Origin: an uncultured Oscillospiraceae bacterium
Lineage (GTDB): Bacteria > Bacillota > Clostridia > Oscillospirales > Oscillospiraceae
NCBI GenBank assembly: GCA_947625815.1
Contig: CANQPU010000016.1
Location: forward strand, 1 to 43,142
Length of the DNA: 43,142 nucleotides
Reading direction: 5' to 3'
Shown here piece after piece: positions 36,034 through 43,057 of this stretch. A program made the translations under genes and the position numbers. Each line of letters opens with the position of its first letter. The first letter of the stretch is position 1. The notes below the pieces were generated by a model. It ran no database searches and was not told the origin of the DNA. It saw nothing but the letters and a program-made list of their open reading frames with translations.

Positions 36034-37792
36034 TTTCATTTCCTCCTTTGTCCTTCTTCTCATAGAATTTCTGTACCTGATGATAATAGCCCAGGTGGAA
36101 GGTCCCCTGATCGGCCAGGGACATCCGTGTGGGCAGGGTCTCATGGATTCGGCCCTCCAGGTCGCCGATCATTTTCTCAAAATAGGTCTTCAGCCCACCC
36201 TCCAGCTTCCGCAGATGGCTCTGTGACAGCTTGGTGAGCAGGGGGAAGATGGCGGCGGGGGTGGCGCAGGCGCTGTTGAAATACTTGTCCTTGATGGTGG
36301 CGTTGATGCCGGGGTTGGCTGCGGACTGGACCCGCTCCAGCACGGCGAACAGCCGACCCAGCACATAGGGAAGATGGTTGCTTTGATCGTTGAGTTCCAC
36401 GGCTAAAACCTCCTCCGGAACTTTGAATTCTCTGTTTTTCAGGAAAAATGCTTTCAGAATGGCCGCCCGGCCATAAGTGACGTTCTGTTCGGCCCGGATG
36501 CGCAGCATGGTCTGCTCCAGCAGCGCAACGGGATAGGGACCGCCGGACAGAATGGCCCGGACAACAGCTCCTGCCATGGGCGGGGACGCTTTCTTGTCCC
36601 GACTGTTGGGGTTGACGGTCTCATTCAACAGCCGCCACAGGGGCAGGGCTCCATTTGCGGCATATGCGGGCCTGACGATCTCCAGCCGGTCATAGTGGGC
36701 CTGCACATTGGACAGCATCCGCCCAAAGGTGCTCTGCAAAAAGAACCGCACGCTCAGCCTGGCGGCGTTGGGGGCGAGGCCCAGGACGTAGAAGCGGTTT
36801 TCTGGATCGAGGGAGATGCCGTTCACATCTACTGGGTCACCGTGGGCCAGCGCCCGAACCGCGCTTCGCAGGTCCGCGTCGGTCATCACCTCGGACGTGC
36901 CACCGAACATGGCGCAGGAGAAGATATCCTGGTTCAGCGGTTCGGCGTCCTCCGCCCAGAAGACAACGGCGGTGTCGCCGATGGTCTGGAGGTGTTCCCT
37001 GTCCGCAATGAGCCGGTTCAGCGCAGCGCCGTATTTGAAGGCGGCCTCTTCGGAGACAGGGGAGTTGAGCCCCTGGCCGGTCCCGTCGGACTGCTCGTGG
37101 CCGAAGGATTCAAAGGCGGCGGCGTTGAAGGACACCAGCGATGCCCCGCTGGACTGGGCGCCCTGAACCCCCTTGATGGCGGGGTGGAGCCGGGCGATGG
37201 GGGCCTGCCTGCCCGTCACGAGACACAGGCCGGAGGAAGCCCCGGCGGAGCTTGCGGCGCGGCTATTTTCCCATGCGGCCCGGATGGCGGGATCATTGTG
37301 GGCGTACAGCCCGTTTACGGAGAAGACCAGGTTCGCTCCCTTGAACATCTCCTCAAGATAGGGGAGAAGAATCGGGTGTTCCGCCGCTTGTTCCGGCTGC
37401 CAGGCATCGAAAAAGGCGCACACCGCTCGGGCGGCGGGGGAGTCCACTGTATCGAGAACGTTTCGGTGAAGGACCTTTGCGTCCTCAAAACATTTCAGCG
37501 TCCGGTCCGGTTTCCCCTTGTTGTCAATGCCAAGAAAATAGGAACTGTTGTCACACAGAAAGTTTGCGCAGATGTTGACAGCCCGCTTTTGTTGTTCCGG
37601 TACCCGCAGGGATTGGGGAACCTCTTTTTTACTTCCTTCCGCTGTGATTTTCAAAGGAAAGACCCTGCGGAGTTCCCCCTGCTCGTCGATGTCCAGGGCA
37701 AAGGAAACCTTAGCCACGCTCCAGCCGGGGGGCGTGATCTCTCCCCGCTGGGCCAGGGCATCGTAGTAGTCACAAAGCGCCTGCAAGATCAT
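36026..37792 (-). CDS. cas8c: Cas8c large subunit (Csd1)
   Basis: This 588-aa protein, the normal Csd1 size, opens MILQALCDYYDALAQRGEI and contains FYVLGLAPNAARLSVRFF, typical of the family. It recognises the PAM and recruits Cas3; an internal start may yield the small Cas11c subunit, as known for I-C. ATG 37792 overlaps the cas5c stop (ATGA) and has GGAGGTG upstream. Confidence 0.95.
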   Translation of the reverse strand: MILQALCDYYDALAQRGEITPPGWSVAKVSFALDIDEQGELRRVFPLKITAEGSKKEVPQSLRVPEQQKRAVNICANFLCDNSSYFLGIDNKGKPDRTLKCFEDAKVLHRNVLDTVDSPAARAVCAFFDAWQPEQAAEHPILLPYLEEMFKGANLVFSVNGLYAHNDPAIRAAWENSRAASSAGASSGLCLVTGRQAPIARLHPAIKGVQGAQSSGASLVSFNAAAFESFGHEQSDGTGQGLNSPVSEEAAFKYGAALNRLIADREHLQTIGDTAVVFWAEDAEPLNQDIFSCAMFGGTSEVMTDADLRSAVRALAHGDPVDVNGISLDPENRFYVLGLAPNAARLSVRFFLQSTFGRMLSNVQAHYDRLEIVRPAYAANGALPLWRLLNETVNPNSRDKKASPPMAGAVVRAILSGGPYPVALLEQTMLRIRAEQNVTYGRAAILKAFFLKNREFKVPEEVLAVELNDQSNHLPYVLGRLFAVLERVQSAANPGINATIKDKYFNSACATPAAIFPLLTKLSQSHLRKLEGGLKTYFEKMIGDLEGRIHETLPTRMSLADQGTFHLGYYHQVQKFYEKKDKGGNENV

Positions 37793-38442
37793 CGCAGCAC
37801 CTCCTTCCAGGCAATCTCCAGCACGCCGTTTTTCAGCTCGGCCATGAAGAACATGGGGCGGATATCCCGGGAGTTGGAGTAGTCCATGTCGTAGAGCATC
37901 AGCCCCAAGGAACGGCTCTCCGGGATCGTTGGCACCGGCCCGCCGGGCCAGGCCCGGAAATGGGCGGGGAACTCCCGGCAGCCGAAACAGGGCTGGTGGT
38001 AGCACTGGCCGCTCGCCAGCCTCCGCCGGGCGATGTCGATGAACTTGCCCTCGTTGTCCGACGGCGCGGCCTTGTCAGTCATGGTGAAATGGGCGTCGAT
38101 CACATAGCGGACATTGGTCAGCACCATGGAGGCCCGCTGTTGGATGCTCTCGCCGGTGTAGATGGCCAGGGGCTTGTCTCCGCCCGTCATCGCCGCTCGC
38201 ACGTTGGATGCGGTGATCTTGTCCTTGACCTCATTGCGCCGGATGTTGGTAAAGGCGATGGGGTTCATCACATGGACACGGTCGATGTGCCACCTAAGGC
38301 CCGGGTGCCAATATATGGCTTCGATCAGCCCCCGTGCGGCGCTGGGCGTGATCACGTCGTAGCTGACGCGTTCCACCTTCAGCTCCGGGCGGGTGAACAG
38401 CGCATAGTCCCCCCACACCTCCACCTGGATTCCTTGGCTCAT
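37789..38442 (-). CDS. cas5c: Cas5c, pre-crRNA endonuclease and Cascade subunit
   Basis: This 217-aa protein has the Cas5d/I-C opening (IQVEVWGDYALFTRPELKVE) and SYDVITPSAARGLIEAIYW. In type I-C it replaces Cas6: it cuts in the repeat to leave an 11-nt 5' handle and then caps the crRNA. It is the first gene of the cas5c-cas2 operon. AAAGGAG (within 38453-38460) is its ribosome site and overlaps the proposed PAM of the crRNA-like regulator. Confidence 0.95.
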   Translation of the reverse strand: MSQGIQVEVWGDYALFTRPELKVERVSYDVITPSAARGLIEAIYWHPGLRWHIDRVHVMNPIAFTNIRRNEVKDKITASNVRAAMTGGDKPLAIYTGESIQQRASMVLTNVRYVIDAHFTMTDKAAPSDNEGKFIDIARRRLASGQCYHQPCFGCREFPAHFRAWPGGPVPTIPESRSLGLMLYDMDYSNSRDIRPMFFMAELKNGVLEIAWKEVLR

Positions 38443-38457
38443 AGTTGCTCAACTCCT

Positions 38458-38494
38458 TTCTATAAAATGATAAATAAATTGTAGCCGATAAAAA
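38458..38494 (-). promoter_or_regulatory. Putative PAM-flanked target of the crRNA-like RNA in the cas5c promoter
   Basis: TTC at 38458-38460 (plus strand) is followed by TATAAAATGAT (38461-38471), identical to the first 11 nt of the spacer-like segment at 38590. A full-length R-loop (to about 38494) would cover the start site, the -10 box and part of the promoter spacer. Confidence 0.7.
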
Positions 38495-38506
38495 TGCAAA
38501 TGTCAA
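38478..38506 (-). promoter_or_regulatory. Strong promoter of the cas5c-cas2 operon
   Basis: On the minus strand, a perfect TTGACA (38506-38501), an exactly 17-nt spacer and TACAAT (38483-38478) place the start near 38470, about 28 nt before cas5c. Confidence 0.88.
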
Positions 38507-38516
38507 TATTTTTTTG

Positions 38517-38546
38517 TTGCCTGACGATGGTGAATTAGAGTATACT
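38517..38546 (+). promoter_or_regulatory. Promoter of the crRNA-like RNA
   Basis: TTGCCT (38517-38522), an 18-nt spacer and TATACT (38541-38546) predict a start at about 38554, the first G of the repeat-like element. It is back-to-back with the cas5c promoter, 10 bp between the -35 boxes. Confidence 0.7.
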
Positions 38547-38553
38547 TAGTAAT

Positions 38554-38653
38554 GTCCCGTGAGCAGCTTGCTCATGGGTGGATTGAAATTATAAAATGAT
38601 CAATTACACATGGCGATTCAGAGGGTAAATGTGACAGCATTTACCCTCTGAAT
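38554..38653 (+). ncRNA. CreR/CreA-like crRNA-resembling regulatory RNA
   Basis: The element begins with one repeat-like unit (38554-38589). CCCGTGAGCA and TGCTCATGGG form a 10-bp stem with one G-T pair, followed by TGGATTGAAAT, the same 11-nt handle as the older repeats of the array. A spacer-like part (from 38590) begins TATAAAATGAT and runs into a 16-bp hairpin (38616-38653) in place of a second repeat. The stem sequence differs from the array repeat, so it is not a stray array unit. The promoter, handle, guide and PAM-flanked target fit the CreA/CreR class, in which Cascade loaded with a crRNA-like RNA represses a nearby promoter. No toxin gene (creT) is evident, so autorepression of cas5c-cas2 is favoured. 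The function is inference; the parts are visible in sequence. Confidence 0.75.
38616..38653. terminator. 16-bp hairpin between cas3 and the crRNA-like RNA
   Basis: ATTCAGAGGGTAAATG (38616-38631) pairs perfectly with 38638-38653. It lies 6 nt beyond the cas3 stop and ends the crRNA-like RNA on the other strand. It probably serves both; T tracts are weak. Confidence 0.7.
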
Positions 38654-38658
38654 CTGTT

Positions 38659-40821
38659 TCACAGAATGATCCCTACGCCCTCACTATCAGGTACCCCAAG
38701 CCCCGTATCCTCATCATACAGGGAAATATCGGTCAAGACATAGAGATCCTCCTCCATCATGTCCACGGCGCCCCGTCCCAGCAGGGCGTCCAGGTGATTT
38801 TTATATACGTTGACGCTGTATTGCCCTGCCTTCCGCAGCAGGGCCCGGCTCCGCTCACCGTTTCGCAGGCGGGCGGCGATCTCCTTGGCCTCCTCTGTGC
38901 GTGGAACAAGGACGGCGTAGGTGCTTTGGTCGATGAGGTGAAAAGCCTGCGCTAACTTGACGAAAGGGAAGGTGGGACAGCGGGGGTCCTGTACACCGTT
39001 TTCCAGCAGAGAAACGATGTGTTTGCTGTCGATTTCCGCCCCGGTGAACTGACGCAGAGCGGTGAAATAGCGCTCAATGGTCTCGGGATCGTCCAGCGCG
39101 GGGCAATCCCGGGTGACGGCGCGCATAACCTCCAGCGGCCGCTTCATCGCGTGGGGCAGGGTCGCGGTGTAGGCGTCATCCGGCCGGAAAATGTATACGC
39201 GGCTGTCGTCCGCGGGGCGCTTTCCCTCCCTGTTGCACCGCCCGGCGGCCTGGACGATGGAGTCCAGCCCCGCCTCGGCACGGTAGACCGCGGGGAAATC
39301 CACATCCACGCCGGCCTCGATGAGGCTGGTGGACACCACCCGGCAGGGCAGGGCGGCTTTCAGCCGGTCCCTTATGGTGCTCAGCACCTCCCGCCGGTGC
39401 TCCGGCGTCATCAGTGTGGACAGGTGGAAGCCGCCCTCCCTGTCCAGCAGATCATAAACCGCCTGGGCCTGCTTGCGGGTGCTTACGATGCACAGAACCT
39501 GGTCGTGGGCACGGAGTCTCCGCGCCAGCTCCCCGTTGGAAAGCTGCCCCAGGTGCTCATAGCGCACGCGCTCGAAGATGCACTTTGGGACGGCGGGGGC
39601 GATCTCCCGGGGGGCCAGCTCGGTTGCGATGGCGGTGAACATGGGCCCCAGGGCCGGCTGAGTGGCGGTACACAGGACACAGGACGCGCCGTAGTTCACG
39701 GTCAGCTCCGCAATGGCCCGGACGCAAGGCAGAAGATAGGACAGCGGGATGGTCTGGGCCTCGTCAAAGATGATGACGCTGTCCGCCAGATTGTGGAGTT
39801 TCCGGCACCGGGAGGGCTTGTGGGCAAAAAGAGATTCAAAAAACTGCACGGCGGTGGTCACAATGACCGGCATATCCCAATTTTCGGATGCCAGCTTCCG
39901 GCGCTCCTTCTCCGGGTCCCGCGGTCCGTTCTCGTCGTCCCCGAAGTCCACATTGGAGTGGTGCTCCAGTACCGCCTCATCGCCCAAGATCTGACGGAAG
40001 GTGTCTGCCGTCTGCTCGATGATGCTGGTGTAGGGAATCACGTAGACGACGCGCTTTTTCCCGTGTTCCACGGCGTGGCGCAGGGCGAAGGCCAGGGAGG
40101 AGACGGTCTTGCCGCCGCCGGTGGGCACCGTCAGGGTGAAAAGGCCGGGGTCTTGGGCCGTTCCGGCCTCCATACAGGCGTTTAGGATGTCCTGGCGGGC
40201 GCGGTCAAGCTCGGACTTCGGGTCCTTCCAGCGGGTTATGTATGTCTCCAACCGGACAAGCAACTCGTCTACGGTGATGTCGCTGCCTCTGGGCGGCGGG
40301 CTCCCCAGCATGAACGTCTCCGTGTCCAGAAAATCCGCGTCCACCAGACAGGAGAACAGCATCCTTATGAAGAAAGCCATCGTAAAACCGCCCTGCCCCA
40401 GGACCCTGGGCGGGCGGAACCGGGGACGTGTCAGATGAATCTCTCGGGAAAAATCCCCGTAGGGCTCCACCTGCCTCTTGAGCCGTCCGTTCAGGGTGGA
40501 GTCGGAGGAGACATCCAATTTTCCTCCTCCGTCCGGCAGGCCGCCGTGATGGCCCGCCACGCAGTAGGCCGCGGGCCAGCCCGCGTATTTCATGATTTCC
40601 TGGGCGCCTGCGGTGGAGTGGTCGGTGTGAATGTTTTCCCCCGATATACGCCGCTGGAAGGCGCGGGAGTACTTCCCGATGTCGTGGGCAAGCCCCAGCT
40701 GCCTCCCCACCTCCTCCGCGCCGAAGGGCGCCGCAAACCCGGCGCAGAGCTCGGCCACGTTTTCCGCGTGCTCCGAAACACTCTGCTCCCGTCCGTCCTC
40801 CGTGCGATGGGCAAGATACAT
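38659..40821 (-). CDS. cas3: CRISPR helicase-nuclease Cas3 (HD fused)
   Basis: This 720-aa protein has an N-terminal HD nuclease domain (SEHAENVAELC, LAHDIGKYSRAFQ, then VAGHHGG) followed by a superfamily 2 helicase. The helicase shows Walker A VPTGGGKTVSS, box II FDEAQTIPL and motif VI region QAAGRCNREGK. It degrades DNA opened by Cascade. ATG 40821 is chosen because AAGGAGGG lies 7 nt upstream; ATG 40839 is too early. It is transcribed in the same direction as the other cas genes but is cut off from them by the 216-bp regulatory gap. Confidence 0.95.
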   Translation of the reverse strand: MYLAHRTEDGREQSVSEHAENVAELCAGFAAPFGAEEVGRQLGLAHDIGKYSRAFQRRISGENIHTDHSTAGAQEIMKYAGWPAAYCVAGHHGGLPDGGGKLDVSSDSTLNGRLKRQVEPYGDFSREIHLTRPRFRPPRVLGQGGFTMAFFIRMLFSCLVDADFLDTETFMLGSPPPRGSDITVDELLVRLETYITRWKDPKSELDRARQDILNACMEAGTAQDPGLFTLTVPTGGGKTVSSLAFALRHAVEHGKKRVVYVIPYTSIIEQTADTFRQILGDEAVLEHHSNVDFGDDENGPRDPEKERRKLASENWDMPVIVTTAVQFFESLFAHKPSRCRKLHNLADSVIIFDEAQTIPLSYLLPCVRAIAELTVNYGASCVLCTATQPALGPMFTAIATELAPREIAPAVPKCIFERVRYEHLGQLSNGELARRLRAHDQVLCIVSTRKQAQAVYDLLDREGGFHLSTLMTPEHRREVLSTIRDRLKAALPCRVVSTSLIEAGVDVDFPAVYRAEAGLDSIVQAAGRCNREGKRPADDSRVYIFRPDDAYTATLPHAMKRPLEVMRAVTRDCPALDDPETIERYFTALRQFTGAEIDSKHIVSLLENGVQDPRCPTFPFVKLAQAFHLIDQSTYAVLVPRTEEAKEIAARLRNGERSRALLRKAGQYSVNVYKNHLDALLGRGAVDMMEEDLYVLTDISLYDEDTGLGVPDSEGVGIIL

Positions 40822-41017
40822 CCTGTATCCCTCCTTCATTCATTAGGCAGGACGCAAAGCGCGGCAGCATCCCGTCTCAAAATTGCGTAAAATGTGTAGG
40901 ACGATGATTTGAAAACCGTTCCACGTCTCTATTATCCGCCGAAGTGCTAAAAAATGCAAGCGGAGTTTCATGCGGTATTCTCGCTCCTCCGCCCTTTCCC
41001 AGGAGGCCGGGAGACAA

Positions 41018-42156: not shown

Positions 42157-43057
42157 ATGGATTTAACAACGATTATTGCCAACTACATGGAACGCTGTGA
42201 GAACGTAAAAAAGCTTTCGGCGGATACACTGAAAGCGTACCGCATTGACCTTGCGCAATTTCGAGATTTTGCAGGGGAGGGTTGGACTGAGAAAGAAGCA
42301 TTGAATCGGTACATCATGCACCTCAACCGGAGCTTCGCGCCCCGGTCCGTAAAGCGAAAGCTTGCCAGCGTCAGGGCGTTTTTCAATGACCTGGAGTTCA
42401 ACGAGATCATCGAGATCAACCCGTTTGACAAGCTTCACGTCAAGATACAATATCCACAACAACTTCCAAGGACGATCCCGGAGGACGTTATAAAGAGGCT
42501 TTTGCAGAGTGCACGGTTACGACCCTGTCCGTAGGGAGACGCTACTCGACATTGTGGTGCTGGAGCTCTTGTTCAGCACGGGCCTTCGGGTGTCGGAATT
42601 ATGTTCGCTCACGCCGGATACTTTTTTACTGACTAGCAACGAGCTTCGGCTGCTGGTCAGGGGGAAGGGTCTGAAGGGGCGAATGATTGAGCTATCGACA
42701 CCGGATCTGATAGTGCTCTTTAACAAATACTGTTCCGAATACGCTGCGGAAACAGCTTCTCAAAACGCCATCCTCATCAACCACCGCGGACGACCCTTGA
42801 TGCCGCAGTCCGTTCGTCGTATCATACATAAACACCTTGAACGCATCGGTTCCACGAGCAACATCACCCCCCACATGTTTCGCCACACCTTCGCCACATC
42901 TCTCTTGGAGGCGGGAATGGACATACGGTATATCCAGTCGCTGCTCGGCCACAGCTCCATATCGACTACCCAGATTTATACGCATGTCGCATCACCGCGC
43001 CAGACGCAACTCTTAGCGGAGAAGCATCCGAGGGGGAAAATGACGTTCAAGCTGTAA
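42157..43057 (+). pseudogene. XerC/XerD-like tyrosine integrase, frameshifted
   Basis: The first part (42157 to about 42510) is a SAM-like core-binding domain (LSADTLKAYRIDLAQFRDFA, SVKRKLASVRAFFNDLE). The catalytic domain continues in another frame from about 42509: Arg in STGLRVSELC, HMFRHTFAT, LLGHSSISTTQIYTHV with the nucleophile Tyr. All catalytic residues are present. The break sits where helix LLQSA should join GYDPVRRETLL. It is disabled unless the shift is a sequencing error or is bypassed. Confidence 0.82.

What the first reader, a model, noticed from the sequence alone, without database searches (positions are those of the whole stretch)
38507..38653. A crRNA-like RNA gene hidden between cas3 and cas5c
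The plus strand has a promoter (TTGCCT, 18 nt, TATACT) whose predicted start is the first G of a lone CRISPR-repeat-like unit: a 10-bp stem, then TGGATTGAAAT, the type I-C crRNA handle. A spacer-like part follows, and a 16-bp hairpin stands where a second repeat would be. The stem sequence differs from the array repeats, so it is neither an array fragment nor a stray repeat. This is the layout of CreA/CreR-type RNAs known from type I systems. No standard annotation would list it.
Basis: partly seen in the sequence, partly recalled or inferred. Interest (0 to 1): 0.93.

Follow-up and report, generated by a model that had tools for sequence, protein, structure and literature searches.

The report
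Guide RNA that throttles its CRISPR
Between two CRISPR genes of a bacterium lies a small, unannotated guide RNA gene that appears to lead the bacterium's own CRISPR complex back to the switch of the CRISPR genes to turn them down, and many related bacteria carry versions whose guide and target have changed together.

Summary
The lone type I-C repeat-like unit (38554-38589) is followed by a 25-nt guide. The guide's first 17 nt match 38461-38477 at all positions but 12 and 16. That site is flanked by TTC, the I-C PAM, and abuts the -10 box of the divergent cas5c promoter; it is the only such site found in the genome. In relatives, 29 of 53 distinct cas3-cas5c gaps of at least 60 nt carry a unit with the common handle. 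27 of these 29 clearly match a TTN-flanked site in their own gap, one is borderline and one has none. Four more units, with a variant handle, were found through such a match. Guides form 20 families. Mismatches fall at guide position 6 (23 of 32) and 12 (29 of 32), but at 31 of 480 other cells within 1-17, the fingerprint of type I Cascade base flipping. Best explanation: a type I-C CreR, a crRNA-like RNA that makes Cascade repress its own operon without cleavage. Transcription, processing and repression are inferred. Known kind, new subtype and architecture.

The parts
38517..38546 (+). predicted promoter of the guide RNA gene (TTGCCT-18-TATACT)
   Evidence: consensus scan, 9 of 12
38554..38589 (+). 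solitary type I-C repeat-like unit: 10-bp stem (38556-38565/38569-38578) and 11-nt 5' handle TGGATTGAAAT (38579-38589)
   Evidence: such units in 29 of 53 distinct gaps of 60 nt or more, plus 4 with a variant handle
38590..38614 (+). guide; first 17 nt (38590-38606) match the cas5c promoter site except positions 12 and 16
   Evidence: compared with the similar unit of L023, guide and target have co-changes at positions 7, 10 and 13
38615..38654 (+). 17-bp perfect hairpin with short T-run: terminator-like 3' end standing in place of a second repeat
   Evidence: guide-to-hairpin distance 17-31 nt in 31 of 32 units (median 24), 56 in L095; rejected by the strict terminator scan
38458..38460 (+). 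PAM TTC
   Evidence: TTC in 27 of 32 units, TTT 3, TTA 2
38461..38477 (+). target (protospacer) of the guide, abutting the -10 box and covering the predicted start of cas5c transcription (about 38470)
   Evidence: only match in the draft genome at up to 2 mismatches, itself with none
38478..38506 (-). predicted cas5c operon promoter TTGACA-17-TACAAT
   Evidence: 11 of 12
37789..38442 (-). cas5c, first gene of the presumed regulated operon (then cas8c, cas7, cas4, cas1, cas2 down to 33144)
   Evidence: NCBIfam TIGR01876, TIGR01863, TIGR02589, TIGR00372, TIGR03640, TIGR01573
38659..40839 (-). cas3, on the far side of the hairpin
   Evidence: TIGR01587/TIGR01596
31526..32972 (-). type I-C CRISPR array; 21 spacers of 33-36 nt measured, competing source of crRNAs

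Best explanation
This is a cas-regulating RNA (CreR) of a type I-C system. The plus-strand gene gives a short RNA with one repeat hairpin, the I-C handle, a guide of about 25 nt and a terminator-like hairpin. Cas5c is expected to cut at the base of the repeat stem and keep the handle, and Cas7/Cas8c to assemble on it. The guide pairs with about 17 nt next to a TTC PAM over the -10/start region of the cas5c-cas8c-cas7-cas4-cas1-cas2 promoter. The bound Cascade blocks RNA polymerase, but the pairing is too short to license Cas3 cleavage, so the operon represses itself. When array crRNAs take up Cascade subunits, or an anti-CRISPR disables Cascade, repression should be relieved. Shown here: anatomy, PAM, guide-target match, uniqueness of the target in the draft genome, recurrence in relatives, co-variation, the base-flip mismatch pattern, and position on the predicted promoter. 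Inferred: transcription, processing, binding, repression and its release.
For: The window guide matches its target over 11 consecutive nt next to TTC; the best other TTC site on either strand of the window has a run of 4. Over PAM and 13 guide positions it is the only site in the draft genome at up to 2 mismatches, with none; the backwards control pattern has one match. Relatives: of the 29 common-handle units, 22 have a TTC-flanked match of at least 12 of 15 positions in their own gap, against 7 of 812 swapped and 9 of 5800 shuffled guides. With TTC, TTT or TTA allowed, it is 27 of 29, against 15 of 812 and 60 of 5800. Four more units with handle GGATAGAAAT score 13-15 with TTC (found through the match). 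A search with no PAM requirement and no excluded positions finds the same site in 31 of 32; its 32 best sites follow TTC (26), TTT (4) or TTA (2), against a 2.4% background of TTC. Mismatches: position 6 23/32, 12 29/32, 18 22/32, other positions of 1-17 31/480. Window versus L023: all three guide differences at pairing positions are matched in the target. Target centre relative to the predicted cas start: 29 of 32 within -60..+30; randomly drawn PAM sites give mean 10.8, maximum 21 in 20,000 draws. L033, close sister of L035, has a changed handle and no target above 9 of 15. Literature (passages only): E. coli Cascade binds maximally with no more than an 18-bp match, flips every sixth base and needs longer pairing for interference (PMC5904413). 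A type I-C Cascade represses from TTC/TTT PAMs, and a single repeat-spacer suffices in E. coli (PMC10865793).
Against: No RNA or binding data. 20 of 53 gaps of 60 nt or more have no recognised unit. L079 has a unit without a target; L024's score of 11 is reached by 323 of 5800 shuffles. Only 1 of 24 testable short-gap loci has a unit with a target within 500 nt upstream of cas3. Of 60 regions upstream of more distant Cas5c genes only 6 do. In 12 of 32 loci the target lies just upstream of the -35 box (centre -56 to -47), where repression is less certain. The terminator scan rejects the hairpin. Stems of 6 bp or more occur in 17 of 32 units against 32% of shuffles. The same E. coli study saw no effect on transcription at its short-match off-target sites (PMC5904413 passage). 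The promoters are consensus predictions.
Confidence: 0.86

Rival explanations
1. It is a CreA antitoxin: Cascade with this guide represses a small toxin gene (CreT) in the gap, making the cell dependent on CRISPR-Cas.
For: The closest anatomical analogue found in print, type I-F CreTA of Acinetobacter, lies in the cas3-csy1 gap, has a 20-nt guide with 17 pairs (not 6, 11 and 18) and a divergent mini-ORF with a Shine-Dalgarno (PMC10097628: section 6 read, other passages). Six relatives (L004, L005, L006, L027, L030, L031) have a similar 27-36 aa ORF upstream of cas5c that ends in ATGA over the cas5c start.
Against: In the window the predicted start lies about 28 nt from the cas5c ATG, behind a Shine-Dalgarno-like AAAGGAG, with no room for another gene. 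In the six relatives the small ORF runs into cas5c, so cas5c would be on the same transcript.
Confidence: 0.05
2. It is a stray or fossil CRISPR unit (mini-array remnant) or a local duplication of promoter sequence without function.
For: L004 has two repeats with a 34-nt first spacer and near-array repeats, so units can arise from mini-arrays. L033 and L040 look decayed.
Against: Guides and targets differ together across 20 families. Mismatches concentrate at 6, 12 and 18, and the target, not the unit, carries the PAM. Neither drift nor duplication predicts this.
Confidence: 0.04
3. It is a defence guide: an orphan crRNA against a mobile element, whose match to the promoter is incidental.
For: Has the handle and a guide of crRNA type.
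Against: The only match found in the genome is the cas5c promoter, and 27 of 29 common-handle units clearly match their own gap. The guide regions (17-31 nt in 31 of 32, median 24) are shorter than the window's 33-36 nt array spacers. No search of the guides against phage collections was made.
Confidence: 0.02
4. Cascade with this RNA activates or re-routes transcription instead of repressing it, at least where the target lies just upstream of -35.
For: 12 of 32 targets centre at -56 to -47, close to where class I activators bind (activator geometry recalled).
Against: The window belongs to the other class: its target covers the start of transcription. Known CreRs repress (PMC13131331 passage).
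Confidence: 0.03

Closest known systems
CreR, cas-regulating RNAs (Liu et al. 2023, Cell Host Microbe; paper not held; known here through passages of reviews PMC13131331, PMC12737573 and PMC12948488)
   Same: crRNA-like RNA from a repeat-like unit in the cas locus, partial match to the cas promoter, expected autorepression by Cascade
   Different: One review passage names I-B, I-E and V-A, another Type I and V-A in general. Here the system is I-C, where Cas5c rather than Cas6 processes the crRNA (PMC7684278 passage). All units but L004's were seen with one repeat, followed by a terminator-like hairpin instead of a second repeat; guide region median 24 nt.
CreTA (I-B haloarchaea, PMC9458426 passages; I-F Acinetobacter, PMC10097628)
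   Same: repeat-like unit, in Acinetobacter in a cas3-effector gap; about 17 pairs with gaps near every sixth base; divergent target promoter next to a PAM
   Different: the controlled gene is a small toxin RNA; here it is cas5c. The Acinetobacter units have two repeats.
scaRNA-directed Cas9 repression in Francisella
   Same: CRISPR effector used as a transcription repressor with short pairing
   Different: type II, different RNA and protein (seen in a passage of PMC9458426)
Racr, phage-borne solitary repeats (PMC10651486, start of abstract in a listing)
   Same: solitary repeat RNA
   Different: phage-encoded inhibitor; ours lies in the cas locus and its guide matches the cas promoter

Membership tests
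CreR | repeat-like and spacer-like unit outside the array, in the cas locus | tested here: met
   38554-38614, between cas3 and cas5c
CreR | guide partly complementary to the promoter of its own cas operon, with the subtype's PAM | tested here: met
   TTC at 38458, 15 of the first 17 positions match, abutting -10 of a predicted promoter
CreR | complementarity limited, so binding without cleavage | tested here: inconclusive
   sequence part met: match falls to chance after position 17 in the 32 loci; absence of cleavage itself not testable
CreR | RNA is transcribed, processed by the crRNA nuclease and loaded on the effector | not testable with these tools
   promoter, handle and stem predicted only
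CreR | represses cas expression, relieved by crRNA load or anti-CRISPR | not testable with these tools
   none
CreTA | target promoter drives a small toxin gene | tested here: not met
   window: predicted start about 28 nt from the cas5c ATG, no intervening gene; in six relatives a small ORF intervenes, undecided there
CRISPR array fragment | repeat identical or nearly so to the array, spacer of array length | tested here: not met
   repeat differs in the stem; 25 nt from handle to perfect hairpin against 33-36 nt spacers

The most novel reading that the evidence does not exclude
A widespread, so far undescribed I-C branch of CRISPR self-control. A one-repeat guide gene with a terminator hairpin as its 3' end builds a short Cascade that works only as a transcription factor on the cas promoter. 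Guide and operator pairs turn over quickly, in two geometries: over the start site, and just upstream of -35, where it might even activate. It would let the host read out crRNA load and anti-CRISPR attack.
Probability: 0.4. Interest if true: 0.78.

Novelty: new variant of a known kind. Interest (0 to 1): 0.64.

Why it matters
[quoted passage not shown] This gives a concrete, testable control circuit for it, seen in 32 distinct gene neighbourhoods of Clostridia and relatives, many from gut samples by their record titles. It also gives a simple computational signature to find more: a handle, then a guide whose 17-mer recurs next to TTC with mismatches at positions 6 and 12. The mismatch pattern is evolutionary evidence, from natural sequence alone, that I-C Cascade ignores every sixth base and that about 17 pairs suffice for the selected function. 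If right, it offers natural promoter targets that should be bound without cleavage, useful for I-C repression tools, and natural sensors of anti-CRISPRs.

Tried and rejected
Array fragment: rejected, repeat and guide length differ. Array spacers as the regulator: the best match of the 21 spacers to the gap is 10 of 15 with PAM AGC. CreTA: see rivals. Terminator: the strict scan found none in 38300-38800; several relatives' hairpins have better T-runs (by eye). Rfam: only a tRNA at 1-71 at the gathering threshold.

Weak or negative results. Stems of 6 bp or more in 17 of 32 units against 32% of shuffles. Pair counting on two sequences (window and L023) gives 10 of 10 pairs kept in both and 3 double changes, but 56 of 500 shuffles do as well, so it proves nothing alone. 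The Cas5c tree (80 rows, 30 labelled CreR) shows the label scattered: 22 changes, at least 16 forced by starred branches, 87 of 500 shuffles as low, so gains and losses cannot be told apart. Of 59 loci from two TIGR01876 draws, searched over about 1.1 kb upstream of cas5c, 3 gave units with targets of 13 or more (L109, L118, L159). Of 60 longer regions, 40 of them from genomes already in that set, 6 did (L168 and L177 repeat L109 and L118); the reversed-sequence control had 8 handles and none. Some of those regions end 2.7-3.7 kb upstream at contig ends, so a promoter before cas3 may have been missed. L079 has a handle but no TTN-flanked match of 10 or more in its 10.6-kb locus. L024 scores 11 of 15 and fits the targets of L004 and L021 better (12). 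L040 has an altered handle and no match above 8. Cas5c relatives in plasmids (54 records) were found but not followed. The four variant-handle units were found by looking for the match, so they are no independent support. The -60..+30 limits were set after seeing the data.

Rows dropped: L014 had no Cas5c match under my threshold. Of 96 other loci plus the window, 8 had no measurable cas3 gap and 5 gaps were duplicates. 33 loci with gaps under 60 nt were analysed apart: 24 testable, 9 too short upstream of cas3; two of the 9 have their longer copy among the 24.

Literature: in the listings seen (most are capped at 10-30 rows) I saw no paper on a CreR in type I-C. The defining CreR paper is not held and may list I-C examples. 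PMC9067536 (passages) predicts structured RNAs in I-C loci, one about 300 bases upstream of cas3; I could not identify it with this one. PMC11417383 held none of six searched terms.

Full report
What is there. The window carries a complete type I-C locus on the minus strand: cas3 (38659-40839), then cas5c, cas8c, cas7, cas4, cas1 and cas2 (38442 down to 33144) and an array. Between cas3 and cas5c lie 216 nt. On the plus strand they hold a promoter-like site (38517-38546), a lone I-C repeat-like unit (38554-38589), a 25-nt guide (38590-38614) and a 17-bp hairpin (38615-38654) that ends four bases before the cas3 stop codon. On the minus strand they hold a near-consensus promoter (TTGACA-17-TACAAT, 38506-38478, 11 of 12) whose predicted start, about 38470, lies some 28 nt before cas5c. 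The two promoters are divergent.

The missing piece. The guide begins TATAAAATGATCAATTA. The site 38461-38477 reads TATAAAATGATAAATAA and is preceded by TTC. Eleven bases match in a row, then 13-15 and 17; the mismatches are at 12 and 16. No other TTC site in the window matches the guide in a run longer than 4. In the draft genome (35 contigs) a pattern of PAM and 13 guide positions with up to 2 mismatches matches only here, with none; the same pattern read backwards has one match. TTC and TTT are used as I-C PAMs in PMC10865793 (passages). TTC is named for the Xanthomonas I-C system in PMC8406640 (start of abstract). The target touches the -10 box and covers the predicted start.

Relatives. 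Cas5c relatives were taken from 60 genomes, the window's own included (13 with a match), the public genome set (best 80 of 377 confirmed) and viral contigs (4). Of 53 distinct gaps of at least 60 nt, the window's included, 29 have a handle of the common form. For these 29, the best TTC-flanked match over guide positions 1-5, 7-11 and 13-17 reaches 12 of 15 or more in 22; guides swapped between loci reach that in 7 of 812 tests, shuffled guides in 9 of 5800. Allowing TTC, TTT or TTA, 27 of 29 reach it, against 15 of 812 and 60 of 5800. The other two are L024 (11, a score that 323 of 5800 shuffles reach) and L079 (none). Four more gaps have the handle GGATAGAAAT with TTC targets of 13-15, but I found these by searching for the match. 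The 32 units with a site, L024 and these four included, are used below.

Fingerprint. Over the 32, mismatches are at position 6 in 23, at 12 in 29 and at 18 in 22, but at only 31 of 480 other cells of positions 1-17; beyond 18 the match is at chance. Because the score ignored 6 and 12, I repeated the search with all 17 positions, and again with no PAM. The site was the same in 31 of 32 each time. The profile in the first repeat was 23 at position 6, 28 at 12 and 32 of 480 elsewhere. The PAMs of the best sites in the second were TTC 26, TTT 4 and TTA 2, against a TTC background of 2.4%. PMC5904413 (passages) reports for E. coli type I-E that every sixth base is flipped, that affinity is maximal with no more than an 18-bp match, and that interference needs more. 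The same paper saw no effect of short off-target binding on nearby transcription, a caution for my reading. A like pattern (17 of 20, not 6, 11 and 18) is printed for the I-F CreA (PMC10097628).

Co-variation. The guides fall into 20 families. Within families, guide differences are mostly matched in the target: L005/L006 at 1 and 5; L004/L019 at 4, 9 and 17; the window and L023, the unit most like it in guide, at 7, 10 and 13, all of their differences at pairing positions. L024 is an exception: it fits the targets of L004 and L021 better than its own. The window and L023 repeat stems are both 10 bp with three double changes, though two sequences are too few for a test (56 of 500 shuffles do as well). 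L033, very close to L035 in Cas5c, has TTGGAAT for TTGAAAT in its handle and no target above 9 of 15, as expected if both decay together.

Position. With the best sigma-70-like site taken as the cas promoter, target centres form two groups: 12 at -56 to -47 and 17 at -2 to +28; three lie at +44, +44 and +82. 29 of 32 lie in -60..+30, against a mean of 10.8 and a maximum of 21 for randomly drawn PAM sites in 20,000 draws. These limits were set after seeing the data. In 30 of 32 the target reads in the same direction as the guide gene.

Spread. 20 of 53 gaps show no unit, and close relatives L017, L018 and L022 have short gaps without one. Of 24 short-gap loci with enough sequence, one (L060) has a unit with a target within 500 nt upstream of cas3. 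In 60 regions upstream of Cas5c genes from wider draws, 6 have a unit with a target of 13 or more. On the Cas5c tree the trait is scattered. It looks like an often lost or exchanged accessory.

Mechanism. The simplest account is Cascade-mediated autorepression guided by a CreR, as set out in Best explanation. The pairing length fits binding without cleavage. The single repeat fits the report that an I-C repeat-spacer without a second repeat still represses in E. coli (PMC10865793, passage). The guide region (median 24 nt) is shorter than the window's array spacers (33-36 nt) and suggests a shorter Cas7 filament; this is inference.

Place among known things. CreRs are described in reviews for I-B, I-E and V-A (PMC13131331 passage) and for Type I and V-A generally (PMC12737573 passages). 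I saw no I-C case in the listings of eight literature searches, but the defining paper is not held. I therefore call it a new variant of a known kind, not a new kind.

Noticed in passing
L004, L005, L006, L027, L030, L031, upstream of cas5c: A similar 27-36 aa ORF (for example MVEARRTGGRTNR..) just upstream of cas5c, ending in ATGA over the cas5c start: a possible leader peptide or CreT-like element; not found in the window by the same scan. L034 and L041 have unlike ORFs ending at the same place.
   Followed up: partly
L004:2140-2600: A two-repeat mini-array: a first 34-nt spacer of unknown target, then the self-targeting guide; repeats close to array repeats. Looks like an intermediate between array and CreR.
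   Followed up: partly
L005, L006, L010, L034, L035, L037, L038, L055, L069, L073, L074, L081 gaps: Targets placed just upstream of the predicted -35 box rather than over the start: a second geometry with tight spacing.
   Followed up: partly
L006 gap: An insertion of roughly 230 nt between the targeted region and cas5c relative to L005 (gaps 625 and 391 nt), interrupting a hairpin-like stretch with TTAAGGTGACA; by eye.
   Followed up: no
window 42157-43057: Two overlapping plus-strand ORFs in different frames that by eye resemble the halves of one tyrosine recombinase; not tested.
   Followed up: no
window 38616-38588 (-): A third promoter-like site (TCGCCA-17-TATAAT, 10 of 12) antisense to the guide gene, reading towards cas5c; may be chance.
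   Followed up: no
L178, unit about 2.85 kb before cas5c: A unit in the same direction as the cas genes, with a TTT-flanked target 479 nt away; a different layout.
   Followed up: no
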